Positions 7,110-55,281 of a stretch of 64,000 bases of DNA are shown one piece after another (position 1 is the stretch's first letter; the number at the start of each line of letters is the position of its first letter). The notes under the pieces are model-generated. The model saw only the letters and a list, made by a program, of their open reading frames with translations, ran no database searches and was not told where the DNA came from. Source of the stretch: Raphanus sativus (Eukaryota; Streptophyta; Magnoliopsida; Brassicales; Brassicaceae); assembly GCF_000801105.2 (NCBI RefSeq), contig NC_079512.1, forward strand, positions 3,181,902-3,245,901, in the 5' to 3' direction. The translations under genes were made by a program, and so were the position numbers.

Positions 7110-7114
7110 ATTTC

Positions 7115-15128: not shown

Positions 15129-15381
15129 TTACCGCGCGTCACACTTTACACATGTATATCATTCCCCTAGTTTCTCGGGGTCTTTTACGCGCGTGGGATC
15201 TATAAGCGCGTGCGTCTTACTCACAATCGCTTCCTAGGGTTAGTCTCGTTGCTGCAATCACGATCCTATTATCTCACACCGATCTTCGATTCCTTGCTTC
15301 GAGTCTCCAATATCGCCACCGTGCGCGATAAACCCTAAAAAAACCCTAATTTTCCCAAATCAGAGAACCGTCAACGAGGCG

Positions 15382-15726
15382 ATGGCGTCTGGTGCTATAG
15401 CTCCGAAGGCAAAGCACAAACGGAGCGAAATCAGCAACAAAAGAATCGAAACCCACGACGGCGGCGGCGAGACCGTCGTCGTCTCCGTCGAATCCACTCA
15501 TGTCGGAAGCTAATCGTCGGACGATGATGAAGATAAGTCTGAACTCGATTTCGAAGCTCGAAGCTCGCACCTTGAAGCGGAGACTAACCTCTGAGCTCGA
15601 AAAAGTCAGAACCTTTATCAACCGCCTCGACAAGAAGGGAGGTAAAGCTCAGATCTTGAAGAGCTGCGGTGGCTTGCTTTCGAAGCTGATGAAGCATAAG
15701 TTCGGGTGGATTTTCAATACCCCGGT
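15382..15726 (+). pseudogene. GTE3: GTE3 5' fragment, truncated and frameshifted
   Basis: Begins with the same ATG context as the intact gene at 23730 and follows it through the coiled-coil region into the start of the bromodomain (WIFNTP). It then breaks at 15726 and runs into the upstream flank of the second CLE gene. An extra base near 15451 (agaatcg against agaacg in the intact copy) also shifts the frame after about 23 codons. About 115 of 396 codons are represented. The promoter with two CCCTAA telo-box motifs (about 15331-15352) is still present, so a short transcript is possible. No functional bromodomain or NET domain can be made. Confidence 0.93.
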
Positions 15727-22787: not shown

Positions 22788-23481
22788 ATTCCCCTTAGGG
22801 CTGGGCGTTCGGGTACCCATTCGGGTTTCGGTTCAGTCCATTCGGATCTCGGGTTTTCGGGGTCAAAGATTTCAGCCCCATTCGGATATTTCTAAATTTC
22901 GGTTCGGGTTCGGTTCGGATCTTTGCGGGTTCGGTTCGGGTTCGGATAACCCATTTAAAATATTTTTAAATTTTCAAAATTCATTATATACTTTAAATTT
23001 TCAAAATCTATAAGAAAGATAATATATTACATATAAATTTTCATAACATATATCTCAAAATACCTTAATTTAACATATAAATTGGTTTTCTTTGAATATT
23101 TGGATAAAGAATCAATAGATATTAACTATTTTGGTGTTTTCAGTATACTTTAGCTATTTTAAACATTTACTTTTGACTATTTGCATATATTTTCCGAGTA
23201 TTTTGGAGAACTTAAAGGTATCTTATATATTTTTAATATTTTTAATATACATTATATATAAAAATAATGTATATATTTAAGTATATAAATTTATTTCGGA
23301 TACATTCGGGTACCCAAAATATTTCGGTTCGGATCGGGTTCGGTTTCGGTTCTTTAAATACCAAAATTTTGAACCCGTTCGGATATTTAATCAATTTCGG
23401 TTCGGGTTCGGTGCTACTTTTTCGGATCGGGTTCGGTTTGGTTTTTCGGGTTCGGATTTTTTACCCAGCCCTAATTCCCCT
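22788..23481. mobile_element. Non-autonomous hAT-type element in the GTE3 promoter
   Basis: The element is 22796-23473 (678 bp) with 8-bp duplications ATTCCCCT at 22788-22795 and 23474-23481. Ends are TAGGGCTGGGC and its complement GCCCAGCCCTA with one mismatch inside. Subterminal regions are dense in GGTTCGG/CGGGTTCGG words, and there is no coding capacity. The matching site in block copy 1 (about 15162) is empty. Similar but decayed GGTTCGG-rich sequences occur at 26680-27085, 48790-49290, 57110-57670, 59200-59830 and 61790-62440. Confidence 0.92.
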
Positions 23482-23729
23482 AGTTTCTCGGGGTCTTTTA
23501 CGCGCGTGGGAGCTAAAGCGCGTGCGTCTTACTCACAATCGCTTCCTAGGGTTAGTTCCGTTGCTGCAATCCAATCACGATCCTAACCTGACCTAACCTA
23601 AACCCCTTTCTGATTACCTCACACCGATCTTCGATTCCTTGCTTTCGAATCCCCAAAATCGCCACCGTGCGTAATAAACCCTAAAAAAACCCTAATTTTC
23701 CCACAATTAGATAAACCGTCAACGAGGCG

Positions 23730-25180
23730 ATGGCGTCTGGTGCTATAGCTCCGAAGGCAAAGCACAAACGGAGCGAAATCAGCAACAAAAGAACGAAACC
23801 CACGACGGCGTCGGCGAGATCGGAGAGGCCGCCGTCGTCGTTTCCGTCGAATCCACTTATGTCGGAAGATAAGATGAAGATAAGTCTGAACTCAATCTCG
23901 AAGCTCGAAGCTCGCAACTTGAAGCGGAAACTAACGTCCGAGCTCGAAAAAGTCAGGACCTTTATCAACCGCCTCGACAAGAAGAAGGGAGGAGGTTGTT
24001 CCGACAAAGGTAAAGCTCAGGTTTTGAAGAGCTGCGGTGGCTTGCTTTCGAAGCTGATGAAGCACAAGTTTGGGTGGATTTTCAATACCCCGGTTGATGC
24101 GGTTAAATCCGGTTTACATGATTACCACACGATTGTTAAGAAGCCTATGGATTTAGGGACGGTTAAGAGTAGGTTGAGTAATAAGTACGAGTCTCCCTTG
24201 GAGTTTGCTGAGGATGTGAGGCTTACTTTTAACAATGCGTTGCTGTATAACCCTGTGGGGCATGAGGTTCATCGTATGGCTGAGTTTTTGTTGAACATGT
24301 TTGAAGAGAAGTGGGCCCCGCTTCAAACACAGTATCAGTCTCTTAATAGTAGTCAACAAGAACGAGCTCCTCCTCCTATAGTGGTTGAGGATAGGACTTT
24401 GGAGAGAGCAGAGTCTATGACAAACGCGGTGGAGCCTGCAGCTCTAACCGTTTCCCCTGAGAAGCGTGAAGAAGAGGATAGGGACTTGACGTTTGAGGAG
24501 AAGCGGAGACTTAGTGAAGACCTTCAGGATTTGCCTTTTGATAAGCTAGAGGAAGTTGTTGAGATTATAAAGAAGAGGACACCGGAACTTGAACAACAAG
24601 ACGATGAGATTGAGTTGGATATTGATAGTCTTGACCTCGAAACGCTTTGGGAGCTTTATAGGTTTGTGACAGGATATAAGGAGAGCTTGAGTAAGAAAAA
24701 GGAAGAGGGTGGATTGGGATCAGAAAGAGAAGGTGAATCTGTTCACGAGAGTGTCCAAGAACCTGTGAGTGCAAGTAACTAATTGTCATTCAGTTCTCTG
24801 CTTTTATCTAGACTCTAATGATATCATGTTTCTTCTTTTGTGTTCACAGAACACTCTAGTAACTGGCCCTGTATCGACGAAAGTTACAGAATCAGGTGAG
24901 ATTTCAGTTCTTAAGTACTAGATTAGTCTCTTTTAGCCTCACTGGAATAACTCTACTTTAATCTTGTTTTTGACATTTTAGGTCATGTGGCATCTCCAGT
25001 TCGTCAAGTAAATGCTGGTGGATCAAGTAGTTCTAGTAGTAGTAGTGGATCAGGCTCTTCTAGTGGTAAATGTTGAAACTTGTCTACTCTTCTTCTCCCT
25101 TATCAGCATTGCGTTTCCAAACCAGTTTACTTACACTCCTCTTTCCTTATGCAGATTCTGACAGTGATACTGGTAACTAA
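23730..25180 (+). CDS. GTE3: GTE3: BET-type bromodomain protein
   Basis: Four exons: 23730-24764, 24850-24895, 24982-25065, 25155-25180, all GT-AG and phase-consistent, 396 residues. A basic N-terminus and coiled coil (about residues 45-85) come first. A bromodomain follows (about 110-200) with the WIFNTPVD start, the PMDLGTV motif and the conserved NP in LLYNPVG (acetyl-lysine-binding region). Next is a NET domain (about 250-315) with the acidic DDEIELDIDSLD motif, then a Ser-rich, Asp-ended tail. Plant GTE proteins are nuclear acetyl-histone readers; Arabidopsis GTE3 also interacts with the SUMO system. Promoter CCCTAA telo-boxes lie at about 23677-23696, and the hAT insertion ends 256 bp upstream of the ATG. 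If the first intron is retained, the protein ends early, after 350 residues. Slightly shorter than the Arabidopsis protein as I recall it. Confidence 0.95.
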
Positions 25181-29639: not shown

Positions 29640-30113
29640 TTTATTATATAATATTAAGATTTTTAAGGGTGGGTTTAAGATTTTTTTTTTTCGTTTTATA
29701 TTTATTATTTAACCAAGTGGATATTTATTCGGGCCATAAATGGGCTATGCATGGGCTAACGCTTCTCTTGAGTGTTGTTAATGGGTTTAGATTATAAGAA
29801 AAGCATAACTTAATGTGCTTGTTATGTGTATGCTTACGTATATGTGTTTAGAGGAAGGATACAGAATTAGAAGAAGTGGATGATGCCACGTGGAGGAGAT
29901 GGCCAAAGAGAGGCATGGGTCTGGCCATAATCTACATCGGTAGAAGTGAGTATGGATTCTACCCCACTCCAATATTGTTTTATTTTTATGTATGCATAAG
30001 TTCCATTCACATTTGATGATGATGCGTGTATATATAAATGCAACTGATCTCACAACACAGACACACATTATATTCTATACTTTTAACAATATCCGACTAT
30101 TATCATACACATT
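29640..30113 (+). promoter_or_regulatory. Promoter and 5' leader of the LEA-like gene, cut off by CACTA insertion
   Basis: GCCACGTGG (G-box/ABRE core ACGTG) is at 29885-29893 and a TATA box (TATATATAAAT) at 30028-30038, so transcription should start near 30060. Leader sequence follows to 30113, where the CACTA element begins. The rest of the leader resumes at 38073, only 30 bp before the ATG. The ABRE fits an ABA/stress-regulated LEA-type gene. Confidence 0.75.
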
Positions 30114-30129
30114 CAATACAAGAAAACAC

Positions 30130-30470
30130 GCAGATTCTGAGGGAAATACCGAGGGAAAATGAGTTCCTCGGAAATTTCGGACAAAATATCGAGGAAATAC
30201 CGAGGAAACCAAGAAATAGGGTTTCCTCGAAATTTCCTCACTATTTTTTGAGGAAATTTCGAGGAACACCAACTTCCTCTGTAATTTTCGAGGGGATACC
30301 GAGGAAACCAGGGTCGTCGGAAAAAATCGACGGATATTTCTAATATTTCGACGACATCTTGTAGCCGTTAGAGAGCCGTTGGGAAAGCCGTTGGGGGATT
30401 TAAACAATTTCGAGGAAATTTCGAGGAAATGTCTGTTTCCCTCGAAATTTCCTCGATATTTCCTCAGTAT
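30130..30470. repeat. Left subterminal repeat array of CACTA element
   Basis: Many copies of GAGGAAATTTCGAGG-like words in both orientations, giving strong local fold-back potential. Confidence 0.85.
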
Positions 30471-30575
30471 GCCGGGAGGATTTCATCTATAAACACAGCC
30501 ACCCCTCTTCCTCTTCATTCACTCCATTTCTTTTCTTCTTCTCTCCTAGTCTCACGAATTTGATTCCAAAAAAAC

Positions 30576-33500
30576 ATGTCTTCTTCAAATTATTTTCGTT
30601 CTTGGATGGATCGACCTCATTTGGATCCGGACACGAGATTGCTTACGGAAGAATACAATCAAGGTATAATCGAGTTCATGAGGGTAGCTCGCAAACAACC
30701 GGAAGCAGAAACAGGTAAGTTAAGATGTCCTTGCTCTAATTGTAAAAATAGAAAAGTTATTAAAGAGTGGGATGTTTGGACTCATCTATTATTGAGTGGG
30801 TTTACACGAAGTTACAAAATTTGGTATCATCATGGGGAAACTGATTATGAACTTGGTAGTACTAGCGAACCTCAGCCGGCGGTTAGATTAGAAGAACCAA
30901 TTAGGGCGGATGTAGATTATGGTGTAGGTACTGAGCAGATGATAAATGATCATTTTAGAAGGGAAGATTTACCCAATGCAGAAGCTAGGAGATTTTATGA
31001 AATGTTGGATGCTGGAAAGCAACCATTGTACGAAGGTTGCAGAGATGGTCATTCAGCTTTATCATCTGCTATGAGACTGATGGGCATTAAAACAGATTAT
31101 AACTTGGCTGAAGACTGTGTGGATGCGATAGCTAATTTTGTTAAAGGTATTCTACCTGAGGATAATGTAGCTCCAGGTTCATACTACGAGGTTCAAAAAC
31201 TCGTAGCTGGGGTTGGTTTATCTTATCAGGTAATAGATGTATGCCGCGATAACTGCATGATTTATTGGAGGGTGGATGATCAGCGGACTACATGCAAATT
31301 TTGTGGGAAGCCTCGTTATAAAGATACTAGTGGAAGAGTTCCAGTGCCATATAAAAGGATGTGGTATTTGCCTTTGACGGAAAGGTTGCAGAGGTTGTAT
31401 CTTTCAGAATGCACAGCGCAACGAATGAGATGGCATGCGGAGCACTCAACAGATGGTGAGATTAGACATCCTTCAGATGCAAAAGTGTGGAAACATTTCC
31501 AATCAAAGTATCCCGACTTTGCGTATGAGAGAAGAAATGTCTACCTTGGATTATGTACTGATGGTTTCAGCCCGTATGGGAAGAGTGGAAGACAATATTC
31601 TCTATGGCCAGTCATTGTTACACCATACAACTTACCCCCAAACTTGTGCTTGCGACGAGAGTTTTTGTTTCTCTCCATTCTCGTTCCCGGACCAGAGCAT
31701 CCTAAGAGATCACTTGATGTGTTTCTTCAGCCACTAATATATGAGTTGCAACAACTATGGGCTCAAGGTGCTGAAACATACGATATTTCGTGTAAAGAAA
31801 ACTTTCAAATGCGGGCAGTACTAATGTGGACAATAAGTGATTTTCCAGCATATGGTATGTTATCTGGATGGACAACGCATGGAAGGCTATCATGTCCATA
31901 TTGTCAAAATAACACTGATGCTTTCCAACTAAAACACGGAAGGAAAATGTGTTGGTTTGACTGTCACAGGAGATTCCTACCACCTGATCATCCATATCGT
32001 AGGAGTAGGAATTTGTTTACTAAGAACAAGAAGGTGTTTGACAGTCCACCTGCGGAAATTAGTGGGAAAAGTTTGAAGACACAACTAAGAGATTTTGGTG
32101 CAGAAAGGACGCCAGACATCGGTGGACATGCGCGTTTTCCGGTAGATGCTGTTGGAAACCTACATAACTGGCACAAAAAAGTATATTCTGGGATCTGCCA
32201 TACTGGGAGGATCATTTGCTAAAGCATAATTTAGATGTCATGCATATTGAGAAGAACTTTTTTGACAACCTCATGAACACGATCCTTAACGTTCAAGGTA
32301 AAACAAAGGATAATTTGAAGTCAAGACTGGATTTAGGTGATATATGTGATCGTTCAGAACTTCATGTTGATGGGAATGGTAGGGCTCCTTTTCCCATATA
32401 CCGACTTGATGCAGAGGGAAAAAATGCGTTCTTCGATTGGATTTCAAACGATGTGGAGTTTCCAGACGGTTATGCATCTAATTTGCGTAACTGTATCGAC
32501 AGAAAGGAAGGAAAGTTTATTGGTTTAAAAAGTCACGATTGTCATGTGTTGATGCAGCGCTTACTTCCGTTTGCTTTCAAGGAACTATTACCACGAAATG
32601 TTCATGAAGCAATAGCAGGGATAAGTGCTTTCTTCCGCGATTTATGCGCCAGATCATTGACTCTTGAAGGTATTGAAAATCTGAAGACTAACATAGCCGT
32701 GATTCAGTGCAACCTTGAGAAGATATTTCCTCCCTCATTTTTTGATGTTATGGAGCATCTTGTTATTCACCTGGCAAGAGAATTGGAACTTGGTGGTCCT
32801 GTGCAGTATAGATGGATGTATCTGTATGAGCGGTATATGTTTCATTTGAAGAAGATGGTGAAAAATCTAAGTAGGGTGGAAGGTTCTATAGTCGCACAGA
32901 TGATCAATAAAGAAATTTCAAACTTTGCTGAGTACTACTTTCCAGCAGAAGTTCAGACCAAAAACAGAAGACCTGCACGGCATGATGATAGAGGCGAACG
33001 GGCAACATACCATGTTACGGTTCCTGACATTTTCACAGATGTTGGACGACTTAGCGGAAAATCAAAGGACCGTCGACTTACTGAGCAGGAGCGCAGTCAT
33101 TTGGAAACATATTTGCTCACCAACTGCGAAGATGTTCTTCAATATGAGAGGTAAGTTTATTATCTTACAAAATTTTATTTTAACAAATTAACATTTATAT
33201 CTTAATTAATTACATTTTTTGTCTTCACAGGATTTTCATGGCAGAAAAGCGGTTCGAATATAGATACGCTACAGAGGCAGAACTAGAAGAAATGAAGCAA
33301 AAAGAATTTGCTGGATGGATGTTTACTTATGTGAGTGCCTTAAACAAATTAAAAAATCATTTATCACATATTTATAGAAATTAAAAAAATATTTATCACA
33401 TATTTATACTCATATATATGTGCTATTAATAGGTGTTTGCTGGTTTGGCCAGAGGTGAAACATTTGACGATTGGATACGCGAAATGGTGGTTGGACCAAA

Positions 33501-34105
33501 CTATGTTGTGAAGTCATATCCGAGATTTTGTACTCGAGGATATGCATTCACAACTGAAAAGACGAAACGTTCGCGTACGACCTATGATGCTGGCGTTTGT
33601 TCTGCATCGGGAGATGATGTATACTACGGACACATACATGAGATTTTGGAAATCAAGTATTTAGGCCTGCTTGGATTGCGCTGTACTGTTTTCTATTGTG
33701 ATTGGCACGACATCACTCCAGATCAAGGTGTGAGAACAGATGCATTTGGTGTTACATCAGTTAATTCGAGACGAAAGCTGCAATATTATGATCCTTTCAT
33801 TCTTGCTTCTCAGGCCGATCAGGTAAGTTATTGGTCATCATCTGTAATAATTTAAACTTGTACTAAAAAATTTTAAAATGTTACAGGTTTGTTATATCAA
33901 GTACCCCCGGATAAGGAACAGAGATGATCCATGGGTTACTGTTACCAGACTCAACCCGAGAGGCCGAGTTCAGGGGAGTTCTGAGCTGGAAGACCCACTA
34001 CAACCAATCACATCCAGTAACTTAAGTGCAGAAGAAGATGTAGCAGGAGTTGGCCTTGTAGTAGATTTCACCGACTTCGCAGAGGAAGCCGTCGTTCACG
34101 CATAG
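30576..34105 (+). pseudogene. CACTA TNP2-type transposase, frameshifted
   Basis: Exons by eye: 30576-33150, 33231-33330, 33433-33822, 33887-34105. The N-terminus (MSSSNYFRSWMDRPH) carries the transposase-associated CPCSNC zinc motif at about 30727-30745. Then come the Tnp2 core (CTDGFSPYG, VLMWTISDFPAYGMLSGW, LKHNLDVMHIEKN), a DUF4218-like part (MQRLLPFAFKELLP) and a DUF4216-like C-terminal part (YYGHIHEILEI ... VFYCDWHD). Reading breaks in a run of six A at about 32175-32180: the upstream frame ends at 32222, and the family motif HNLDVMHIEKN continues in the next frame. An in-frame TAG at 34103-34105 also precedes 25 more acidic codons to 34182. So the enzyme is probably non-functional here. 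In En/Spm elements this protein cuts the transposon ends. Confidence 0.92.
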
Positions 34106-35060
34106 GATGAACCAGTTATTGGAGAGTTTCACCAAGATCCAGATTCAGATTCATCTGCTGATGATGAGTCGGAATCAGAGTAGTTTTTTTTTTTTTTTTT
34201 TTTTTACTAATTTCGAGGAAATTTCGAGGGAAGTTAGGGTTTCCTCGAAATTTCCTCGGAATAACCCTTAACGGTTTAGGGGTTTGATAAAAAACACCTA
34301 GATCGTCGAAATTTCCTCGAAATATTTCGAGGAAATTTCGACGACCAAGATAATTTTAGGGGTTTGATTTAAAACACCTTGTTTCGTCGAAATACCCTCG
34401 AAATATTTCGAGGAAATTTCGAGGGATTACAAATTTTTTGGTTTTCCTCGAAATTCCGTCGAAATATTTCGAGGAAATTTCGAGGACCTGGCCAATTTTT
34501 GGTAGTTCCTCGAAATTCCCTCACAATATTTCGACGGAATTTCGAGGAACAGGGGGTTTTAAACCGAAAACAACGTTTTGCGGATTGAATAACACGTATA
34601 TAACCTTCATTAAGTGTCTTAGCCAGATTATAAAGTCCAACTTTAGGGTTTTAACCCGAAAACAATGTTTTGCGGATTGAGACGAAAACCACACAACATG
34701 AGATAAACACTTATACGTTTTAATAAACGTTAAAGGAAATACTTACAATAATTTTTGTAATTGTGTTATTTCATTATTTATGATCATCTATACAAAGAAA
34801 CCTCATTATTATGAATTACATTTGTATAAGAAATGACATAGGGGAAAAAAATCGATGTTTTCAAAACCCCAAACCCTCTTTCCTCGAAATTTCCTCACAA
34901 TATTGTGAGGAAATTTCGAGGAAGGTTTTCCTCGGACTGTTTTTCATTAACCAGGAAACCCTAGCCGACAACAAGAAAATTTCGAGGAAATTTCGACGAC
35001 CACATTAAGAATTTCGAGGAAATTTCGACGGACCCTGTCCGTCGGACCCCTCATAAATTA
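34106..35060. repeat. Internal inverted-word array between the two CACTA genes
   Basis: Dense ATTTCGAGGAAA words (34210-34560 and 34875-35045) separated by AT-rich DNA. A T-run of about 20 is at 34184. A near-duplicate pair (accgaaaacaacgttttgcg at about 34562 and the similar cccgaaaacaatgttttgcg at about 34655) marks a local direct repeat. No gene. Confidence 0.75.
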
Positions 35061-35074
35061 GGTTTTCATTCTTT

Positions 35075-35267
35075 TCTTCCCCATTTCTCTTCTCTCGATC
35101 TTCCTCTCTTCCTCTCGCGCGGCTACTCCTTCTCCTCTCCTCTCTCTTCCTCGCGGCTCCTCTCCTTCTCCTCTCCTCTCCTCTCTTCCTCGACGGATCT
35201 CCTCTCCTCTCCTCTCCTCTCTTCCTCTCGGCCTCCTTCCTCTCCTCTCTTCCTCTCCTCTCTTCCC
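35075..35267 (+). repeat. Pyrimidine-rich 5' leader of CACTA second gene
   Basis: About 190 bp of almost pure CT sequence (repeats of CTCTCCTCT), directly before the split start codon of the second gene. It probably forms its leader and core promoter. Confidence 0.6.
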
Positions 35268-37423
35268 ATGTAAGTTCATATCTCTTCTATTCTTCTCTTC
35301 ATAGATCTCGAAATTTAGGTTGTTAGATAGAAAATTCTAGGATTGAATGGATAGTTTAGGATTTGCATGTTTGGATTGTTGTTTGGATTGTTGGTATATT
35401 TTTTTTTTGATTTATTTTGTGTTTTTGATTTTTTAAAACGTTTTTTTGATTTTATAAAACGTTTTTTTGATTTTAAAACAATTTTTTGAATTTTTAAAAC
35501 GTTTTTTTGATTTTTAAAACGTTTTTTTGATTTTTAAAACGTTTTTTTGATTTTTAAAACGTTTTTTGATTTTAAAACTATTTTTATATATTAAAACTAT
35601 TTTTATATATTAAAACTATTTTTTTATTTATTAAACAATTTTTAAAATATTAAAACTATTTTTAATATATTAAAACTATTTTTTTGTAATTATTAAACAA
35701 TTTTTAATATATTAAATTTTTTTAGTAATTATTAAACAATTTTAATATATTAACAAATTAAATAAATAATTGTATATATTAAATAAAATTTATTTATATA
35801 AAGGTCTCAAGAGGAACATACCCGCTCTCGACAGCGTCGTGGTCGTGGTGGTTCGGGGAGCGGCTCCATTTCGGGTTCCGCATCGCCGTACAGCTCCTAC
35901 CAGACATCTCCTTCTCCATTTCCCTCTCATTCTCCTCCCGCTCCCGGTGTGGCACCCACTCCTGCTCCTGCTCCTGCTCATCCGGCACTTCTGAGAGTTG
36001 CGGAGTTTGTTCGACAGCCGGGTCGTGACCATCTTCCATATCTCACTCAGTATCCACGTGGACAGGGTCAGACATGGTAATTAAACCTATTTTTTTTTCA
36101 TTAAAATTTGATTCATTTAAAATAATTAATTCTAAAATAATTAATTCTTTTTATTAGGTTTGACCGATCCAGGAACGGGATCAGCGGATGGATCAACAGT
36201 ATGATGTACTCGTCCCTCGACAATGGACATCCGACTTTCACCGACTTCCCTCTCGAGAAGCAGCATATGTGGTTTCAACAGTTTGCGGTAAGTATTCTAT
36301 TTTTTACTTATTTTTTACTTATTTTTTTCATTTTTAATATTAATTTTCTAATAATTGTGTTTTATTTTCAGCAACAATTCAACTGGAATGCCGATGATAC
36401 GTTGTTTATCTATTACCACTTCGTCCATAAAGTTATGGACAACTATGGGAAGCAGATGCACTCGTGGAAGAAGAAGTGGGAAATAAACAAGGTTCGTTTT
36501 TATTTATGATACAATTTTTTTAATTTTTTAAAATATTTTTTTATTTATTTAACAATTTTTTTTTTAAAGGTTCCAAAGGGGATGGACCCGACGGTCTGGC
36601 AGGAGTTGAGTGTGCATTGGAGTAAGAACGAAGTGAGAGCAACTTCTTCCACCAACTCCACCAACCGCAAGAGCGACCGTAAGGGGAAGGGCATGTACGT
36701 CCATAACTTGGGTGCTCAATCTTTAGCCAGTCTGGGGGATCGCTTGGTAAGCTTGTCGGTTTTTATTATATTATTTAAGATTCTAATATTTTTTTGTGCA
36801 TTTCTTTTAATTACTAATGTTTGTTTAATTTATGTTTTTTTCAAGGCGGAAGAAAATGAGGGGGAGCCGGTTGATCATCTCCGCCTAATAAAGACGGCGT
36901 ATACCAACAAGAAGACCGGCGAGATTGATGATGGTGTTGTGAGGGATGTGGTCACCCTCATCGACAGTCAGATGGAACAGGAAGTGTCTCAGCTTCAAAC
37001 CGAGGATGACGATTCGACGGGATCGACCGGCTTGCCTCGGGTTCGGATCAACCAAATCGTTGAAGCGGTAAGTTCATTTTTTAAAGTTCAATCCATTTTT
37101 ATATTATTTAAATTTGACACTTTTTTTTTCAGTCGGTTCCAAAGAAGAAGGGCCGTTTGTTCGGTTTGGCTCGTCGGTCTCCCTCGGTTCCGTCTGCTTC
37201 TGCACCACCACCGTCCTATGTTGATCAAGAAGTCCTTCTAAGCCAGATGAGGGACAAGGATGCTCGCATATCTGCGCTGGAGTCCATGGTGGCGAGTCAA
37301 GAGGCGGGCTGGGAGGCACAGAGGAAGCTGAACGAGCAAATGATGGCGATGATGAGGAGCATGAACCCGAACGCCAACGTGGACTTCCCGACCATGCCAG
37401 ACCCGGACTTCCAAACCCCGTAG
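35268..37423 (+). CDS. CACTA second protein (Ptta/En/Spm plant transposase family, TnpA-like)
   Basis: Exons by eye: 35268-35269 (AT), 35804-36076, 36158-36287, 36372-36491, 36570-36746, 36846-37067, 37133-37423; 404 residues with every junction in phase. The start codon is split: AT before a GTAAG donor at 35270, and G after the acceptor at 35803. Unspliced, the ATG is followed at once by TAA. Protein: Ser/Arg/Pro-rich N-terminus, then the Ptta/En/Spm domain ([45 protein letters not shown]), an acidic central part, and a C-terminal coiled coil (about residues 340-385). Such proteins are thought to bind the subterminal repeats and assist transposition. This gene has no visible break, in contrast to TNP2. 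Confidence 0.85.
35381..35800. repeat. Low-complexity tandem repeats in CACTA gene intron
   Basis: About seven imperfect units of AAAACGTTTTTTTGATTTT (19-20 bp) at 35429-35575, followed by about ten TTAAAACTATTTTTATATA-like units to about 35760. Confidence 0.8.
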
Positions 37424-37539
37424 TTTAATTTCTTTCAGAAACTCTAAATGTTTTCTTTTCGTTTGTATGACTTTGAATTTTAAATAATATGTTTTCAATT
37501 TAAATTTTAATTTTATATTTTCGAATTTAAATATTTTTT

Positions 37540-38072
37540 TTTAAAAAAACAATTATTAAAAAAAAAAATATTCAAAATATTCCGAGGAACAGCTGTCCTC
37601 GGTATATACCGAGGGATGTGTTCCTCGGAATATTCCGAGGGAAGGTTTCCTCGAAAATTTTCGAGGGCTGCTTTCCTCGAAAATTTTCGAGGAAACAGTC
37701 CCTCGAAATATTCCGAGGAAAACTGGTCCTCGAAATTTTCGAGGAAATAGTCCCTCGGAAATTTCCGACGAAACTGTTTCCTCGAAAACTTTCGTAGGTG
37801 TTTTCCCTCGGTATAATCCTCGGTACATATCGAGGGAATTGTTCCTCAATATATTCCGAGGACCTCTTCGACGAAGGGCAGTCCTCTAAATATCCTCGGA
37901 ATTATGTTTCCTCGAAATTCCGTCACAAATTTTCGAGGAAATTTCGAGGGAAAATGAAATTTCGAGGAGATTTTTTCGAGGGACGTTTTCCTCGGTATTT
38001 CGTCGGAATACGCTTATTCCGACGAAATAGCGAGGAAAAAGTCCCTCAGTATCAGCGTGTTTTCTTGTAGTG
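37540..38072. repeat. Right subterminal repeat array and terminus of CACTA element
   Basis: Clustered TTTCCTCGAAATTTTCGAGG-type palindromes and TTCCGAGG words, ending in the terminal TCTTGTAGTG. Confidence 0.85.
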
Positions 38073-38102
38073 ATTATTTTAAGAGATTATAGAGAGTTTG
38101 AC

Positions 38103-38745
38103 ATGGCAACTTCCAGCTTCTCGTCTCGTGGTGCGCAAACCGTGAACACCATTTTCGTCAAGTAAGTCTGACTCCATACAGTGGCGGAGACAGTGCTTTA
38201 GCACAGTGGTCACTTGACCCATGTGATTTTTAGGAAACAAATTTTTTTACATGTATTTTGAAGAAAAAAATTGAAAACTATCACCATTTTAATTCATTGA
38301 CCCATGTAATATATAGATGCTTATAAAGAAATTGACCCCTCTAATTGATTATGCTGGCTCCGCCACTGACTCCATACTAATAAATGCATTGTGTTATCTT
38401 TTTTTTTCTGATACACACATTGTGTTATCTAACTTGTATTTATACACATGCAATTACATATACAGACCGATGCTTAGGAAATCTATCCACAAGAAGAGCG
38501 GGTCACAAGACATAGTGAGGGAGTCGGTGAAGAGTGATGGCGCCAGCGTCCGAGAGGCCGAGATGAAGACGATGAGAGGTTTCTCCGTGGCCGGAGAGAC
38601 GACGTCAACATCGTCAGAGAGTAGTTGGGTCCCACATGAAACCACGGGAATATACTATCCAAAGGGACAAGAGAAGGTGATGCAAGATGTGCCTCCTCCT
38701 CCAGCTGGTAGCCATGTGGACGAGCTAGTTAACTGGTTCTTTTGA
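38103..38745 (+). CDS. Small LEA_3-like stress protein (At1g73120-like)
   Basis: Two exons, 38103-38161 and 38466-38745; 112 residues. The N-terminus MATSSFSSRGAQTVNTIFVK resembles a short organelle-targeting sequence (Ser/Arg-rich, no acids). The mature part is hydrophilic and ends in the LEA_3-type module SSWVPHETTGIYYPKGQEKVM plus a Pro-rich tail, the pattern found in SAG21-like proteins (SWVPHP.TGYY.P). A stress or dehydration-related role is inferred from the family and from the ABRE upstream. Its promoter is separated from the ATG by an 8-kb CACTA insertion in the 5' leader, and its intron carries an hAT MITE. Exons themselves are intact. Gene order suggests Arabidopsis At1g73120. Confidence 0.8.
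38171..38376. mobile_element. 190-bp hAT-type MITE in LEA-like gene intron
   Basis: The element is 38179-38368 with 8-bp duplications ACTCCATA at 38171-38178 and 38369-38376. Ends are CAGTGGCGGAGACAG and the complement of CAGTGGCGGAGCCAG (one mismatch in 15). There is no coding capacity. It starts 17 bp after the splice donor. Confidence 0.93.
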
Positions 38746-43142: not shown

Positions 43143-43843
43143 CTCCGACAAGACTCAAACAAAAAGAACTCTCGACAGTTTCATCAAATAACGGGTCGAT
43201 TTCGAAAATACGGTTTCAAGTAACGGGCCTTAGCTAGGCCCATATTAGAATTATGGGCCGAGTTGTGTTGCTTTTAGTGAGCAGTAACGTACAATAACAT
43301 CCCTAGGCCTAGCCCGTTAACTGCAATTTCTCGCTAACGACAACTAAAAGGTTGTTATCCACTGCGGTTGTGTTCATGATATCTTCTCTCTCTCTAACGG
43401 TTGATCTCTTCTTGATCTAATTCATCGATGCTGTTCTTTTATATCGTAGATACACAGATGAGTTCGAGAGCTGAGAAACACTCAATAAAAATTACTTCTA
43501 TACCGAATTAAACCGGAATTTGATTAGCAGTCATCGAACCAGAAGACCAAACGGCCACGTTTTAAGAGCATGAAATATATGGAAAGCTGTTATCCAGTGC
43601 GGCTAGGTCCATGATTATTCCTCTTGATAACCGTTGATCTCTACTCGATATAACTATCCTCGATGTCTATAAGTTCTTTTATGTCGTAGATACACCGATG
43701 AGTTCATGAGCCCAGAAACACTCAACAATAACCACTCATAGCTACGAGTCTTCTTCTATAACTTTGTAACTGACAAAAATCCTCTCTTTCCCGGGAAAAT
43801 TTAATTTTCTTTCTGCTCCTCCGAGAAGATCTGAAGAGCGAGA
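43143..43843. promoter_or_regulatory. Divergent promoter region LPA3/GMC, unit A, with internal duplication
   Basis: A block of about 140 bp occurs twice (about 43353-43490 and 43588-43729), sharing TTATCCA-TGCGG, CGTAGATACAC-GATGAGTTC and AGAAACACTCAA. Unit B has a single, shorter version (about 51690-51805). The GMC 5' UTR begins near 43790. Confidence 0.7.
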
Positions 43844-45675
43844 ATGGACTGTTATCTTCTCTACACGGTGCTTCTACTCCTTCTTCTTGGATCAGTTTCT
43901 CTCTCTAACGCAAGGCCACGCGCTAATCGACGTAAGTTTTCCCCAGAACTTTCCCGGAAAAAATCTTTGCTCGTGCTTGAACATCGAACCTAATTAGATT
44001 CTTGTAGCTAGCGATGATCGATTCCTTTGCATCTCACGTGTTTTGCAGATCCCAGTTTCATGCGATCCGTGACGAACGCAACCGATTTCGCGTCGGAGGA
44101 CTACTACGACTACATAATCGTCGGCGGAGGAACGGCGGGATGTCCACTCGCCGCCACTCTCTCCCAATCCTTCCGCGTCCTCCTCCTCGAGCGCGGCGGC
44201 GTCCCCTACACAAACCCCAACCTGATGACTCACGACGGTTTCTTGACGACTCTCACAGACGTCACCGCCGTCGACTCCCCCGCTCAGTCATTCGTCTCCG
44301 AGGAAGGAGTCCCCAACGCTCGAGGCCGCGTCCTCGGAGGAAGCAGCGCGATCAACGCGGGATTCTACAGCAGAGCCGATGAGCACTTCTTCGAGAACTC
44401 AGGTCTCGATTGGGATCTGAGGAGCGTGAATCAGTCTTACGAGTGGGTGGAGAGAGCGATCGTGTTCAGACCTCAGCTGATGACGTGGCAGTCCGCGTTT
44501 CGAGACGCGATGCTCGAGGTCGGTGTGGGTCCCTTTAACGGCTTCACGCTTGAGCATAAGGTTGGGACTAAGATCGGTGGGTCCACCTTTGACCGTTCAG
44601 GGAGGAGACACAGCTCTGCGGATCTTCTCAGATTCGCTAGAAGCTCCAATATTAGAGTAGCTGTTTACGCTACTGTTGAGAGAGTCTTGCTGAGTGATAA
44701 TTCAAATGTCTCTGCTATTGGAGTTGTGTACCGTGATCAGCTTGGACGTTACCATCACGCAATGATACGGGAGAGAGGAGAGGTGATACTCTCAGCTGGC
44801 TCGCTCGGGACTCCGCAGCTGATGCTTCTTAGCGGGATTGGTCCGAGGAGTTACCTTTCGACTTGGGGGATCCCTGTGGCGGTTGACCAGCCTCACGTGG
44901 GAGGGTTTGTGTATGATAACCCGAGGAACGGTATCTCTATTGTTCCACCCGTTCCGATGGAGAACTCGTTGATACAAGTGGTGGGTGTTACGGAGGACGG
45001 TGCTTTTCTTGAAGCTGCTTCTAACGTGATCCCGTTTGCGTCTCCTCTGCATTCAGTTTTCATCAGGGCTCCGGCTTCTCCTCTGTATGTTCCTGTGACG
45101 ACTATAATGGAGAAGATTCTAGGTCCGGTGTCTGTTGGTTCGCTGAGGTTGGCTTCGACGGATGTGAGGGTGAACCCGGTTGTTAGGTTTAACTACTTCA
45201 GTGATCCACAGGATCTGGAGAGGTGTGTGAACGGGACTAGGAAGATTGGTGAAATACTTAGGAGCCGAGCTATGCGGGACTTTATGGTCAGGGAGTGGTT
45301 TGGGAGCCATAGGTTCAGATTCGTTGGAGTTCCGTTACCGTTGGACCAGAGTAATGATCTGGTGATGGCTGACTTCTGCAGACGAACTGTGAGCACTATC
45401 TGGCACTACCATGGTGGCTGCGTTGTGGGGAGAGTAGTGAACTCTGATCTCAAAGTCATTGGTGTTGATTCATTGAGGATCGTGGATGGATCAACCTTTA
45501 ATATCTCTCCAGGGACTAACCCACAAGCTACCTTGATGATGCTTGGAAGGTAAAAAGTTTGTACTTTTTGATACCATTACCGATGCTTTTTGATTAGAGT
45601 AAAAACAATTCTCTATATGACTAAAATTGCAGGTACATGGGTCTGCAGATGCTGAAAGAGAGAATGAGATACTGA
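43844..45675 (+). CDS. GMC oxidoreductase, (R)-mandelonitrile lyase-like, unit A, intact
   Basis: Three exons: 43844-43931, 44049-45549, 45633-45675; 543 residues. A signal peptide (residues 1 to about 23, ending LSNA) is followed by the FAD-binding dinucleotide motif IIVGGGTAGCPLA (about residues 48-60), the GMC signature RGRVLGGSSAINAGFYSR, the second GMC signature (GEVILSAGSLGTPQLMLLSGIG), several Asn-x-Ser/Thr sites, and the C-terminal active-site region IWHYHGGC with NPQATLMMLGRYMG. The family comprises secreted FAD proteins; almond-type members cleave (R)-mandelonitrile to benzaldehyde and HCN, but in Brassicaceae the substrate is not established. Gene order points to Arabidopsis At1g73050. 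The duplicate at 51897 is broken. Confidence 0.94.
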
Positions 45676-46382
45676 TTTTCAGATGAGCTTGATGGCATTT
45701 CTTTTCTGGATTACTTAACTGTTTCTTTTGTTGTATAGCTCTCTATTAGGTGCTTTTACCGTTAGTCTATTCATTTGTTCATTGTTTCTATTGGACTACT
45801 CTCGTTGATTGATGTAATAATAGAGTATAGAGAGTTCTTTAATATTCAGCAGGACTGAGATGTAATGATCAAGAGCTGATCTTGCTCAGAGTAGCTATGT
45901 TTCTCTTACATGAACATACAGAGCAAAATTAAATCATGAGGCAATATTCTTCTCGTCTTCTTTTGGCACACTATGATGGAATATGTTCCATGAAAATGTT
46001 TTCTTCTTGAAGTTTTCTGGAATCTACCAGTCCCTTCGGCAAAGTATGATAGGACAATCAGACATACCTATCATCCTCACTCAGTGCTGCCTTGGAATCC
46101 AATACCTTCCTGCGAAGTCTTTGTCTCTTCATCCTGTTGCCCTCTTTTTATATGCGTTGTTGCAAAAGCTAAATACTCAGTTCCTGTTATGTATCAATCG
46201 ACAACCTGTTTGAATTCCAAAAAGCTTCTGCTGTAGCAAAAAAGGAGAAGTTTGGTTCTTCATAAATGGTATCAAACAAATAGCAACTTCATCTTTGTTG
46301 TTAAATTTTGGTTTCTTTAGCATCTTCCCTTATTTATCTTGTTTACAAAGTAAGTTTGACAATCGAACAGCAGGACAGATAC
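45676..46382. other. Intergenic region GMC to jacalin, unit A
   Basis: The GMC 3' UTR and the jacalin gene promoter/leader. It is nearly identical to 53729-54434 (one 1-bp indel seen near 46005). No separate gene. Confidence 0.65.
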
Positions 46383-46993
46383 ATGGATCAACAGCAACAA
46401 GGTGATAAGAATCTGACAGTGTTCGTTGGACCCTGGGGAGGAAATGGAGGAACCGTTTGGGATGACGGGATCTATTATGGTGTCCGTGAGATCAAACTTG
46501 TTTATGATCACTGCATTGACTCCATCACTCTGGTCTACGATAAGAATGGTAAAGCTGTGAGATCAGAGAAGCATGGAGGTCAGGGAGGCAACAAAACAAC
46601 AGAGGTAATATTCCTCTCTCAGTTTCTGTACATTCATTCCTCTCTTAGATTGTGGCTTCTTTTACACGAACCGAGTTTACACAGATAAAGCTGCAATACC
46701 CAGAAGAGTATCTGATTGGCGTGAGTGGTTACTACAGTCCAGTAGTACACAGTGGCACTCCTGTGATCAGATCAATGACCTTCAAGAGCAATAAACAAGT
46801 GTATGGACCTTATGGAGTTGATCAAGGAACACCTTTCACTTTCTCAGTTAACGGAGGACGCATTGTTGGCATGAACGGTAGAAGCGGCTGGTACCTTGAC
46901 TCCATCGGCTTCCATCTCTCACGCCCTAAATCAACCAAGATGATCAACAAGCTTCGAAAGAAGATTCACTGGCTCACAAGAATGGTTGCATGA
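46383..46993 (+). CDS. Single-domain jacalin-related lectin, unit A
   Basis: Two exons, 46383-46604 and 46685-46993; 176 residues, consisting of one jacalin fold. Typical features: GPWGGNGGTVWDDG at the N-terminus, the GVREIKLVYDHCIDSI strand, YPEEYLIGVSGYY, and the sugar-site loop GRSGWYLDSIGFHL (the GxxxxD-type loop). No signal peptide, so a cytosolic/nuclear mannose-type lectin is expected. A basic tail (KMINKLRKKIHW) follows the fold. The exon junction is phase 0 (KTTE then IKLQ). Gene order suggests Arabidopsis At1g73040. Starting upstream at 46308 would add hydrophobic residues not seen in the family, so 46383 was chosen. Confidence 0.9.
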
Positions 46994-47228
46994 CAAGGCT
47001 TTCTGCATAGAAAACAATATATTTCTGCATAAACTCTGCAGATAAGGATGTTACTTTTTTGTTGCACAAACTCATATCATTGAAGTGGTAAAACAAACAC
47101 AAATATTTTAATATAAAGTTAGTAGACAAAGCAAGTCTCAAAAGTGAGCAATATACACAAATGCGTCAGTGTTCGCAGATAATAGTAGCAACATTTCGAT
47201 AAGGATCTCGTCGTAAGTGGCAGATAGT

Positions 47229-48413
47229 TCATCCTCTGGCCTTGAGTTCTGCAAGCCTCCTTGACAGATCATCCTCATCGACTTTCTCCTCTGTAGCAGT
47301 AGGGATGGTATGGCCAGCAGCCTGAGGAAGTCCAACAGAGACTTCAAGACCGTAGTCATCTGCCACCTGCTGCATCAGGTTGTTGACGTCGCCTTCTGGA
47401 GTGGACAATGATGTCGAACCAGCCATGGCGTTCTCCATGAACTCAGCTTGCACCTCCATGTTCACAAACTGCTTCTCAAATGAATCCATCGTCTCTGACA
47501 TCTTCTGTAGGTTGCCTGGTAAGAGAAACAATGAACAGATAAGCACCCCAAAGCTGTATACAATGAATCTACTTGCTATTTATACTCTACTCATCATGCT
47601 AGTTTCCTATTTTGAGAAGAAGTATGCAACCGAGACTAAAGGATGCACCTTTCTTGTGTGTTTTGCATAAAAACAAAACCTTTCTCTCTACCCAATACGA
47701 ATCATGCAGCTCCACATTAGCCTTTCTTTTTTTTGAGCAAAGCTCCACATTAGCCTAAAATGTCATAACTAAAAACTTAACGAACACGCACAAGTGAACT
47801 CTAATCAATGATTAGCAGACGTCAACAGGCAGAGAAACAATACTCGAAACCGATCATTAAAGTTATAAGAACCCAAAGTTGTACACAACTCAATGAATCT
47901 ACTTGCTATTCAATCTAGCTTCCTCTTATGAGAAGAAGTGTGCAATTAAAACTAAAGGCTGCACCTTTCTTATGTATGTTTCCATAAAAACAAAACCTTT
48001 CTCTCTACCTTAACTTCAAATTAGCTTAACTAAACCCTAATTAATGATTAGCATCACATCAACATACAAAATCACCTAATGACGATACCTGTGGCAAGGG
48101 AAGACTCAAGGGACTTGACGATGTTAGTCATCGACTTGGTGATGGTCGCCATCTTGGCCTGAGTGTCCAAGCGAGCCACAACAGCGTCAAGGCGAGAAGC
48201 GAGGCGGAGGTAGTTCATCTGCTCGCTTCGCTTGCGGATCGCGTTCTCGGCGTAGATCCGAGCGCCGTCCATGTTCCCTTTCTCGATCGCCTTCTTCACC
48301 TTGAGCTTCTCCGCCTTCTCCTCCTTCTCGCACTTCCTCGACTGCCTCTGGAGAGACTTGGACGTGAACTTCAGGTCGAATATCTGATTCATCAGCTTGT
48401 CTGTGTTACCCAT
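47229..48413 (-). CDS. VPS46.2: CHMP1/VPS46 ESCRT-III protein, unit A
   Basis: Two exons on the minus strand, 48413-48089 and 47515-47229; 203 residues, the usual CHMP1 length. The basic N-terminal half ([20 protein letters not shown], rich in Lys/Arg) is the ESCRT-III membrane-binding helical core. The acidic C-terminal half ends in [14 protein letters not shown], a MIM1 motif for MIT-domain partners such as VPS4/SKD1 and LIP5. Plant CHMP1A/B sort membrane proteins into multivesicular bodies. Gene order identifies it as the At1g73030 (CHMP1B/VPS46.2) orthologue. The intron (47516-48088) contains a tandemly repeated segment. Unit B holds a second intact copy. Confidence 0.95.
47570..48060. 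repeat. Two-unit tandem repeat in CHMP1 intron, unit A
   Basis: Two units of about 300 bp, starting at about 47568 and 47890, share CAATGAATCTACTTGCTATT, GAGAAGAAGT-TGCAA, ACTAAAGG-TGCACCTTTCTT and AAAACCTTTCTCTCTACC. Unit B has three units. Confidence 0.8.
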
Positions 48414-51540: not shown

Positions 51541-51896
51541 CTCCGACGAGACTCAAAAAAAAATCCAAAACGATTTTATTAAATTCAATTAACGGGCCTA
51601 AGTTAGGCCCATATTAACATTATGGGCCGAGTTATCCCTAGGCCTAGCCGTTAATTGCAGTTTCAAGATAAAGGCCATGAAAATATATTATCCACTGCGT
51701 AGGGCTCATGATAAACTCTCTTAATAACCGTTGATCTACCTGATCGACAGTTTCATTTGTATCGTAGTACACCGAAGAGTTCGTGAGCTGAGAAACACTC
51801 AATCAAAAGCACTCACTGTAACTGACAAAAATCCTCTCCTTTCCCGGGAAAATTTAATTTTCTTTCTGCTCCTCCGAGAAGATCTGAAGAGCGAGA
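51541..51896. promoter_or_regulatory. Divergent promoter region LPA3/GMC, unit B
   Basis: A single, shortened version of the block that is doubled in unit A. High identity to unit A starts abruptly near 51825. Confidence 0.6.
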
Positions 51897-53728
51897 ATGG
51901 ACTGTTATCTTCTCTACACGGTGCTTCTACTCCTTCTTCTTGGATCAGTTTCTCTCTCTAACGCAAGGCCACGCGCTAATCGACGTAAGTTTTCCCCAGA
52001 ACTTTCCCGGAAAAAAATCTTTGCTCATGCTTGAACATCGAACCTAATTAGATTCTTGTAGCTAGCGATGATCGATTCCTTTGCATCTCACGTGTTTTGC
52101 AGATCCCAGTTTCATGCGATCCGTGACGAACGCAACCGATTTCGCGTCGGAGGACTACTACGACTACATAATCGTCGGCGGAGGAACGGCGGGATGTCCA
52201 CTCGCCGCCACTCTCTCCCAATCCTTCCGCGTCCTCCTCCTCGAGCGCGGCGGCGTCCCCTACACAAACCCAACCTGATGACTCACGACGGTTTCTTGAC
52301 GACTCTCACAGACGTCACCGCCGTCGACTCCCCCGCTCAGTCCTTCGTCTCCGAGGAAGGAGTCCCCAACGCTCGAGGACGCGTCCTCGGAGGAAGCAGC
52401 GCCATCAACGCGGGATTCTACAGCAGAGCCGATCAACACTTCTTCGAGAACTCAGGTCTCGATTGGGATCTGAGGAGCGTGAATCAGTCTTACGAGTGGG
52501 TGGAGAGAGCGATCGTGTTCAGACCTCAGCTGATGACGTGGCAGTCCGCGTTTCGAGACGCGATGCTCGAGGTCGGTGTGGGTCCCTTTAACGGCTTCAC
52601 GCTGGAGCATAAGGTTGGGACTAAGATCGGTGGGTCCACCTTTGACCGTTCAGGGAGGAGACACAGCTCTGCGGATCTTCTCAGATTCGCTAGAAGCTCC
52701 AACATTAGAGTAGCTGTTTACGCTACTGTTGAGAGAGTCTTGCTGAGTGATAATTCAAATGTCTCTGCTATTGGAGTTGTGTACCGTGATCAGCTTGGAC
52801 GTTACCATCACGCGATGATACGGGAGAGAGGAGAGGTGATACTCTCAGCTGGCTCGCTCGGTAGTCCGCAGCTGATGCTTCTTAGCGGGATTGGTCCGAG
52901 GAGTTACCTATCGACTTGGGGGATCCCTGTGGCGGTTGACCAGCCTCACGTGGGAGGGTTTGTGTATGATAACCCGAGGAACGGTATCTCTATTGTTCCA
53001 CCCGTTCCGATGGAGAACTCGTTGATACAAGTGGTGGGTGTTACTGAGGACGGTGCTTTTCTTGAAGCTGCTTCTAACGTGATCCCGTTTGCGTCTCCTC
53101 TGCATTCAGTTTTCATCAGGGCTCCGGCTTCTCCTCTGTATGTTCCTGTGACGACTATAATGGAGAAGATTCTAGGTCCGGTGTCTGTTGGTTCGCTGAG
53201 GTTGGCTTCGACGGATGTGAGGGTGAACCCGGTTGTTAGGTTTAACTACTTCAGTGATCCACAGGATCTGGAGAGGTGTGTGAATGGGACTAGGAAGATT
53301 GGGGAAATACTTAGGAGCCGAGCTATGCGGGACTTTATGGTCAGGGAGTGGTTTGGGAGCCATAGGTTCAGGTTCGTTGGAGTTCCGTTGCCATTGGACC
53401 AGACTAATGATCTGGTGATGGCAGACTTCTGTAGACGAACTGTGAGCACTATCTGGCACTACCATGGTGGCTGCGTTGTGGGGAGAGTAGTGAACTCTGA
53501 TCTCAAAGTCATTGGTGTTGATTCATTGAGGATCGTGGATGGATCAACCTTTAATATCTCTCCAGGGACTAATCCACAAGCTACCTTGATGATGCTTGGA
53601 AGGTAAAAAGTTTGTACTTTTTGATACCATTACCAATGCTTTTTGATTAGAGTAAAAACAATTCTCTATATGACTAAAATTGCAGGTACATGGGTCTGCA
53701 GATGCTGAAAGAGAGAATGAGATACTGA
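51897..53728 (+). pseudogene. GMC oxidoreductase / mandelonitrile lyase-like copy B, 1-bp deletion
   Basis: Exon structure as in copy A: 51897-51984, 52103-53602, 53686-53728. In exon 2, a run of four C in copy A (near 44217) is three C here (about 52268-52271). The frame then meets TGA at 52276-52278, ending the protein after about 88 residues, just past the FAD-binding motif. The remainder of the gene is otherwise about 99 percent like copy A. An ATG inside intron 1 (52068) opens a 512-residue frame that enters the GMC body in the correct frame after the deletion. It lacks the signal peptide and the GGGTAG motif and needs intron 1 retained, so a working enzyme is unlikely. Confidence 0.92.
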
Positions 53729-54434
53729 TTTTCAGATGAGCTTGATGGCATTTCTTTTCTGGATTACTTAACTGTTTCTTTTGTTGTATAGCTCTCTATT
53801 AGGTGCTTTTACCGTTAGTCTATTCATTTGTTCATTGTTTCTATTGGACTACTCTCGTTGATTGATGTAATAATAGAGTATAGAGAGTTCTTTAATATTC
53901 AGCAGGACTGAGATGTAATGATCAAGAGCTGATCTTGCTCAGAGTAGCTATGTTTCTCTTACATGAACATACAGAGCAAAATTAAATCATGAGGCAATAT
54001 TCTTCTCGTCTTCTTTTGGCACACTATGATGGAATATGTTCCATGAAAATGTTTCTTCTTGAAGTTTTCTGGAATCTACCAGTCCCTTCGGCAAAGTATG
54101 ATAGGACAATCAGACATACCTATCATCCTCACTCAGTGCTGCCTTGGAATCCAATACCTTCCTGCGAAGTCTTTGTCTCTTCATCCTGTTGCCCTCTTTT
54201 TATATGCGTTGTTGCAAAAGCTAAATACTCAGTTCCTGTTATGTATCAATCGACAACCTGTTTGAATTCCAAAAAGCTTCTGCTGTAGCAAAAAAGGAGA
54301 AGTTTGGTTCTTCATAAATGGTATCAAACAAATAGCAACTTCATCTTTGTTGTTAAATTTTGGTTTCTTTAGCATCTTCCCTTATTTATCTTGTTTACAA
54401 AGTAAGTTTGACAATCGAACAGCAGGACAGATAC
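53729..54434. other. Intergenic region GMC to jacalin, unit B
   Basis: Nearly identical to 45676-46382. No separate gene. Confidence 0.65.
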
Positions 54435-55045: not shown

Positions 55046-55281
55046 CAAGGCCCTTCTGCATAGAAAACAATATATATCTGCATAAACTCTGCAGATAAGG
55101 ATGTTACTTTTTTGTTGCACAAACTCATATCATTGAAGTGGTAAAACAAACACAAATATTTTAATATAAAGTTAGTAGACAAAGCAAGTCTCAAAAGTGA
55201 GCAATATACACAAATGCGTCAGTGTTCGCAGATAATAGTAGCAACATTTCGATAAGGATCTCGTCGTAAGTGGCAGATAGT

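What the first reader, a model, noticed from the sequence alone, without database searches (positions are those of the whole stretch)
29885..38745. 8-kb CACTA inserted inside the 5' leader of a stress gene
TATA box, ABRE and leader start lie at 29885-30113; the ATG lies at 38103 with only 30 bp of original leader in between (38073-38102). The host exons are intact. The gene must be silent, be driven from the CACTA right end, or have its element spliced out of a long transcript.
Basis: partly seen in the sequence, partly recalled or inferred. Interest (0 to 1): 0.75.

Follow-up and report, generated by a model that had tools for sequence, protein, structure and literature searches.

The report
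Transposon splits radish iron gene's leader
In this radish sequence an 8-kb jumping gene sits between the promoter and the start codon of OLIVIA, a small iron-response gene, so this copy of the gene is probably nearly silent; the type of event is known from other plants.

Summary
Confirmed. A 7,959-bp CACTA (En/Spm) element lies at 30114-38072 with an ATT/ATT target-site duplication. It separates a TATA/G-box promoter and about 50 nt of inferred leader from the last 27 nt of leader and the ATG (38103) of an intact two-exon gene. Homologues and synteny identify the gene as the orthologue of Arabidopsis OLIVIA (OLV, At1g73120), a small iron-deficiency-induced partner of POPEYE. The window is radish or very close: its GTE3 neighbour matches a Raphanus sativus model at 321 of 322 aligned residues. 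A Sinapis alba OLV gene model reads through an unbroken leader, which gives moderate evidence for the empty site.

The element looks immobile on its own: the left end reads CAATA, and the TNP2 transposase has a frameshift and an in-frame stop. Its second gene (Transposase_24) is open.

Most likely reading: the insertion uncouples OLV from its promoter and strongly reduces its expression, as a CACTA element in the 5' UTR of lettuce ANS does. Clean splicing-out is disfavoured (no GT in 30041-30162), and so is a right-end promoter (no TATAWAW between 35795 and the ATG). No transcript data were available. This is a new member of a known kind. Useful corrections: the gene's identity, and iron deficiency as a test condition besides ABA.

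The parts
29886..29893 (.). CCACGTGG palindrome (G-box / ABRE-like) in the OLV promoter
   Evidence: two occurrences in the window (29886, 36054)
30029..30039 (+). TATA run, putative OLV TATA box
   Evidence: role inferred
30060..30113 (+). left part of the OLV leader (start site inferred), ending in TSD copy ATT 30111-30113
   Evidence: transcription start inferred from TATA spacing
30114..38072 (+). CACTA (En/Spm) element, 7,959 bp; left end CAATA, right end TAGTG
30576..34183 (+). TNP2-type transposase gene (Transposase_21, Transpos_assoc, DUF4218), broken: frame change within 32174-32180 and in-frame TAG at 34103-34105; original end inferred
   Evidence: 88 of 120 relatives match in both frames, 85 of them with query gap -5 to 25 residues; 2 of 120 align past the TAG
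34206..35040 (.). internal block of the same repeats as the two ends, upstream of the second gene
35268..37423 (+). second element gene (Transposase_24 / 'TNPA-like'), 7 exons inferred by GT-AG, open reading frame of 404 aa
37576..38060 (.). right subterminal inverted-repeat array
38073..38102 (+). TSD copy ATT plus the last 27 nt of the OLV leader
38103..38161 (+). OLV exon 1
   Evidence: relatives
38179..38368 (.). 190-bp hAT-like insertion (MITE) in the OLV intron; TIR CAGTGGCGGAG, 8-bp TSD ACTCCATA
   Evidence: superfamily inferred from TIR and TSD length
38466..38745 (+). OLV exon 2 with the TGIYY motif (WVPHETTGIYYPKGQEK)

Best explanation
A CACTA element jumped into the 5' leader of the radish OLIVIA (OLV) gene, in the same orientation as the gene. 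Shown from sequence: complete insertion with a TSD, intact OLV coding sequence, a defective left terminus and a broken TNP2 gene. Inferred: the native promoter now reads into the element's transposase gene instead of OLV. Because there is no GT between the TATA box and about the first 50 bp of the element, and upstream ATGs then accumulate, little or no OLV protein is made from this copy. DNA methylation spreading from the element may add to the silencing. With its own transposase broken and its left end mutated, the insertion should be stable rather than mutable.
For: Insertion and TSD. Gene identity: named full-length Brassicaceae hits are 73-87% identical (31 proteins from 37 candidates; a Cochlearia fragment is 69%). 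The TGIYY motif is as described in PMC11020826 (abstract and passages), which calls OLV a unique gene in Arabidopsis. S. alba OLV and GTE3 carry tags 1 and 4 of one scaffold, and B. carinata OLV and GTE3 have tags 4 apart, matching GTE3 and OLV here. Ancestral unbroken leader: the 28-residue N-terminal extension of the S. alba model scores 36.7 on the joined leader, reached by 0 of 500 shuffles, by 2 of 1000 with a random right part and 4 of 1000 with a random left part; the occupied site scores 23.2. No GT in 30041-30162; no right-end TATAWAW, six upstream ATGs. Precedent: CACTA LsC1 in the lettuce ANS 5' UTR leaves ANS about 155 times lower than wild type (PMC8195511 section 9).
Against: No RNA or methylation data. 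OLV shows no decay: frame, splice borders and the TGIYY motif are intact. It has 3 changes at otherwise invariant columns, 2 of them shared with P0008 (five other species looked at have 1 to 6; alignment of 11 of the 31 hits). So the insertion is young or the gene is still used. The empty-site evidence rests on one gene model; each half of the leader alone is not significant (134 and 136 of 500 shuffles reach it). In an earlier version of the test the left flank alone scored higher (34.7) than the joined leader (31.7), and 5 of 300 shuffles and 2 of 300 random stretches reached the joined score. The occupied site also scores above most background (5 of 300 random and 8 of 300 AT-matched stretches reach it). 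Acceptor scores do not decide: the best one before the ATG (0.8) is close to that of OLV's own intron (0.9).
Confidence: 0.68

Rival explanations
1. OLV is still expressed from a start site within the right end of the element or the 27-nt leader remnant, with new or constitutive regulation supplied by the element's repeats.
For: OLV coding sequence intact. A CACTA-like element 3.9 kb upstream of rapeseed CYP78A9 acts as an enhancer through tandem repeats (PMC12822431, abstract passage and other passages). In radish RsMYB1 a 7,372-bp CACTA at -154 with terminus CACTACAAGAAAA is present in all red-fleshed accessions that its authors tested (PMC7210773 passages).
Against: No TATAWAW between 35795 and 38102; six ATGs between 37424 and 38102, the last at 37954. 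Any start site must lie after about 37957 to avoid them.
Confidence: 0.17
2. A long transcript from the native promoter is spliced so that most of the element is removed and OLV is made at a reduced level.
For: A near-perfect donor CAG|GTAAGTT at 30715 (7.9, top 0.1% of GTs), and the element's right end reads TTTTCTTGTAG|TG. The best acceptor before the ATG (38092, 0.8) is about as good as that of OLV's own intron (0.9). CACTA ends can mimic splice sites, and a 13-kb CACTA inside a soybean MYB intron is still spliced out (PMC4219821 passages).
Against: The first GT after the TATA box is at 30163 and scores -6.5. The strong donor lies after the TNP2 ATG (30576) and after three earlier ATGs, so the spliced RNA would keep about 600 nt of the element. 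The acceptor at 38070 scores -0.7, against 0.9 to 5.8 for the seven inferred introns used for comparison. The scoring matrices were recalled approximations.
Confidence: 0.1
3. Assembly artefact, or a rare allele, with the empty site being normal in radish.
For: Only this one sequence was seen; the genome search tool did not complete.
Against: Clean TSD and both termini present. A polymorphic real insertion remains quite possible.
Confidence: 0.05

Closest known systems
Lettuce LsC1/LsC2 CACTA in the ANS 5' UTR (PMC8195511; abstract, passages and section 9 read)
   Same: CACTA element in the 5' UTR of an otherwise intact gene; LsC2 lacks one TIR and is inactive, comparable with the mutated left end here
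   Different: LsC1 is 3.9 kb, non-autonomous and mobile with intact TIRs; the gene is in pigment synthesis; expression was measured
Radish RsMYB1-CACTA (PMC7210773; passages read)
   Same: Same species, CACTA of 7,372 bp with terminus CACTACAAGAAAA, 154 bp upstream of the gene; methylation can spread and silence
   Different: Upstream of an anthocyanin regulator and present in all red-fleshed accessions that its authors tested; its sequence was not compared here
Brassica FT-C2 with a roughly 6-kb CACTA in upstream block A (PMC3469537; passages read)
   Same: CACTA insertion associated with a silent Brassica gene copy
   Different: Upstream regulatory block, not the leader; a retrotransposon is inserted there too
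Rapeseed BnaA09.CYP78A9 CACTA-like enhancer (PMC12822431; passages read)
   Same: CACTA-like element upstream of a Brassica gene
   Different: Raises expression from 3.9 kb upstream
Maize Spm-suppressible / Spm-dependent alleles (mostly recalled; Spm-suppressible alleles are mentioned in PMC4219821 passages)
   Same: Gene state depends on an En/Spm element in or near the gene
   Different: Those alleles respond to an active element; here TNP2 is broken and response to transposase is untested

Membership tests
CACTA (En/Spm) superfamily | Terminal inverted repeats beginning CACTA / ending TAGTG (PMC4158355 passage) | tested here: inconclusive
   Right end exact; left end CAATA; 17 of the 18 terminal bases agree. 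Consistent with a member that has a mutated left end
CACTA (En/Spm) superfamily | 3-bp target-site duplication | tested here: met
   ATT/ATT
CACTA (En/Spm) superfamily | TNP2-type transposase with DDD/E centre | tested here: met
   Transposase_21 E 2.8e-77; gene broken. Catalytic residues were not checked
CACTA (En/Spm) superfamily | Second ORF | tested here: met
   Transposase_24 E 4.9e-25, open frame of 404 aa with exons inferred by eye
CACTA (En/Spm) superfamily | Subterminal short repeats in direct and inverted orientation (PMC8195511 passage) | tested here: met
OLIVIA (OLV, At1g73120) orthologue | TGIYY motif and overall similarity to angiosperm OLV | tested here: met
   79% identical over 99% to the A. 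thaliana protein P0006; motif as in PMC11020826. P0006 is not labelled At1g73120; it has the 109 aa and the motif WVPHEGTGIYYPKGQEK of OLV
OLIVIA (OLV, At1g73120) orthologue | Synteny with GTE3 | tested here: met
   GTE3 at 23730; S. alba N665_0476s0001/0004 and B. carinata Bca4012_027802/027806. That GTE3 neighbours OLV in Arabidopsis is recalled
OLIVIA (OLV, At1g73120) orthologue | Induction by iron deficiency | not testable with these tools
   no expression data
   LEA_3b 22.0 bits vs cut-off 27.5, LEA_3a 21.2 vs 24.7

The most novel reading that the evidence does not exclude
The element has become OLV's new first exon: a transcript from the native promoter, or from the element's own TNP2 promoter, splices from the near-perfect donor at 30715 to the TAG|TG at the right terminus (38070). 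The phases match (139 nt, phase 1), giving an in-frame protein with 46 residues of TNP2, a short linker and the whole of OLV. A matching phase is a 1-in-3 chance event, and the acceptor is weak.
Probability: 0.03. Interest if true: 0.6.

Novelty: new member of a known kind. Interest (0 to 1): 0.36.

Why it matters
If the insertion is common in radish, it is a natural knock-down allele of OLIVIA, a recently described small partner of the iron regulator POPEYE. That would allow a direct test of what OLV does in a crop, provided other OLV copies do not compensate. It would also be another radish gene, besides RsMYB1, with a long CACTA element close to its start. The broken TNP2 and mutated terminus predict a stable allele.

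Tried and rejected
Searching the window's own genome for the terminal motif was tried six times and never answered, so copy number, a second OLV copy and empty sites in the genome are not covered.

The reading of the gene as an LEA_3 gene was dropped: both Pfam scores are below the curated cut-offs. The absence of a radish-named OLV among the 31 hits was considered as a sign of silence and rejected as uninformative, because no B. napus or B. oleracea OLV is named there either, although PMC8065761 lists a rapeseed gene annotated as AT1G73120 (passage).

The first version of the empty-site test was too weak: the left flank alone (34.7) beat the joined leader (31.7), and 5 of 300 shuffles and 2 of 300 random stretches reached the joined score. 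It was replaced by a test fixed at both ends with half-replacement controls and a comparison with the occupied site. A tblastn stretch of the S. alba model also runs into the element's right end in frame (residues 10-48 against 38052-38162, 59% identity). It includes exon 1, and the joined site scores better.

Searches for print on this insertion or gene listed no report of a CACTA element in OLV: 13 of 13 papers naming At1g73120 listed; 25 of 168 listed; 15 of 4,934; 12 of 163; 20 of 29. Most were seen as listings only; of the 13 papers, I searched passages in five. The library holds open-licence papers only.
Full report
Observation. The window holds a 7,959-bp CACTA element at 30114-38072 with the target-site duplication ATT on both sides. 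The right end reads CACTACAAGAAAACACGC inward. The left end reads CAATACAAGAAAACACGC, one base different at the third position. The motif occurs nowhere else in the window with up to 3 mismatches. Upstream lie CCACGTGG at 29886 and a TATA run at 30029-30039. Downstream, 27 nt after the second ATT, is the ATG at 38103. The host gene has two exons, 38103-38161 and 38466-38745, with GT-AG borders and an open frame of 112 aa.

What the gene is. The protein search returned 31 proteins from 37 candidates. The named full-length Brassicaceae matches are proteins of 106-111 aa plus a 141-aa S. alba model, 73-87% identical, with A. thaliana at 79%. The window's protein carries WVPHETTGIYYPKGQEK, the TGIYY motif of OLIVIA (OLV, At1g73120) in PMC11020826 (abstract and passages). 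That paper reports an iron-deficiency-induced small protein that binds POPEYE and is a unique gene in Arabidopsis. PMC5048462 (passages) lists At1g73120 among robustly FIT-regulated genes. PMC7913487 (passages) cites overexpression giving oxidative-stress tolerance, and PMC3695525 (passages) counts it among stress-related mRNAs, so 'stress gene' is not wrong. Pfam LEA_3 scores are below cut-off. Synteny agrees: GTE3 lies at 23730 in the window, and in S. alba and B. carinata OLV and GTE3 carry gene tags three and four apart. CCACGTGG may thus serve bHLH iron regulators as well as ABA factors; this is inference.

Which species. The GTE3 reading frame agrees with R. sativus Rs2_04013 at 321 of 322 aligned residues; the two differ by a 23-residue gap in the public gene model and by where the last exon is read. 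The window is radish or something very close to it.

Empty site. No related plant DNA could be fetched. However, the S. alba OLV gene model P0001 starts 28 codons early, and those codons can be compared with the leader. The joined leader of the window (TATA-side ATG to coding ATG, 103 nt) aligns to the 84 nt of the extension with a score of 36.7; 0 of 500 dinucleotide shuffles reach it. Replacing the right part by random window sequence reaches the score in 2 of 1000 cases, and replacing the left part in 4 of 1000. With AT-matched pieces the figures are 0 and 1 of 1000; with 80 stretches of the element's right end, 0. With a free 5' end, the joined site scores 36.7 (0 of 300 random and 0 of 300 AT-matched stretches reach it) and the occupied site 23.2 (5 and 8 of 300). 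Against this, each half alone is not significant (134 and 136 of 500), and a first version of the test was weak. I take this as moderate evidence that the leader is ancestrally continuous.

State of the element. The first gene encodes Transposase_21 with Transpos_assoc and DUF4218. Its frame changes within 32174-32180. All 120 relatives listed matched by tblastn; 88 match in both frames, and in 85 of these the two matches follow each other in the relative with a gap of -5 to 25 residues. A TAG at 34103-34105 is in frame with the last exon; 2 of 120 relatives align past it, and most do not reach that region. The second gene has seven inferred exons and an open frame of 404 aa with Transposase_24. 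Relatives of TNP2 are many: 1523 proteins from 7599 candidates, the best at 92% over 98% of the query, and one at 98% over 63%. So the element cannot make its own full transposase, and its left end is altered; relatives elsewhere could still act on it in principle.

How it probably works. There is no GT in 30041-30162, so no donor lies in the native leader. The first strong donor is 30715 (7.9), inside TNP2 and after at least four ATGs (30159, 30429, 30469 and 30576). Acceptors near the ATG score at most 0.8, against 0.9-5.8 for seven inferred introns; the 0.9 is OLV's own intron, so acceptor strength does not decide (matrices recalled, a rough guide only). No TATAWAW lies between 35795 and 38102, and six ATGs lie between 37424 and 38102. 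The likeliest result is loss of most OLV expression from this copy. In lettuce, a CACTA element in the ANS 5' UTR leaves expression about 155 times below wild type (PMC8195511 section 9). In radish, a CACTA element with the terminus CACTACAAGAAAA lies 154 bp upstream of RsMYB1, and methylation of the promoter in white mutants is attributed to spreading from it (PMC7210773 passages).

Against silence. OLV shows no decay. It has three changes at otherwise invariant columns, two shared with P0008, whose source is unnamed; five other species examined have one to six (11 of the 31 hits aligned). Either the insertion is recent or the gene is still used. Other OLV copies may exist in the tribe: B. 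rapa has BRARA_B02057, and B. napus has BnaC06g43900D annotated as AT1G73120. The locus numbers suggest different chromosomes; this is inference.

Verdict. A real, clean insertion in an iron-response gene; the kind of event is known, the gene hit is new in what I could search (partial listings), and the effect is untested.

Noticed in passing
window 38179-38368: 190-bp hAT-like MITE in the OLV intron with matching TIRs and 8-bp TSD ACTCCATA; the gene has been hit twice.
   Followed up: partly
window 1982-7110: Copia-type element with LTR-like repeats 99.8% identical over 469 bp (1982-2450 / 6643-7110) around an open pol reading frame (3036-6572); probably very young.
   Followed up: no
window 34206-35040: The element's end repeats occur again between its two genes, upstream of the Transposase_24 gene, which might allow self-regulation of that gene.
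   Followed up: partly
window 43674-48007 and 51752-56032: Direct duplication, 95.8% identical over 4.35 kb, each copy with a GMC oxidoreductase reading frame.
   Followed up: no
window 15161-15726: Partial copy of the start of GTE3 (82.8% DNA identity to 23474-24094), within a zone of shuffled duplicates at about 9.5-22.8 kb that includes two RING-finger genes.
   Followed up: no
P0070: A CACTA transposase fragment is labelled Escherichia coli in a public record; probably plant contamination.
   Followed up: no
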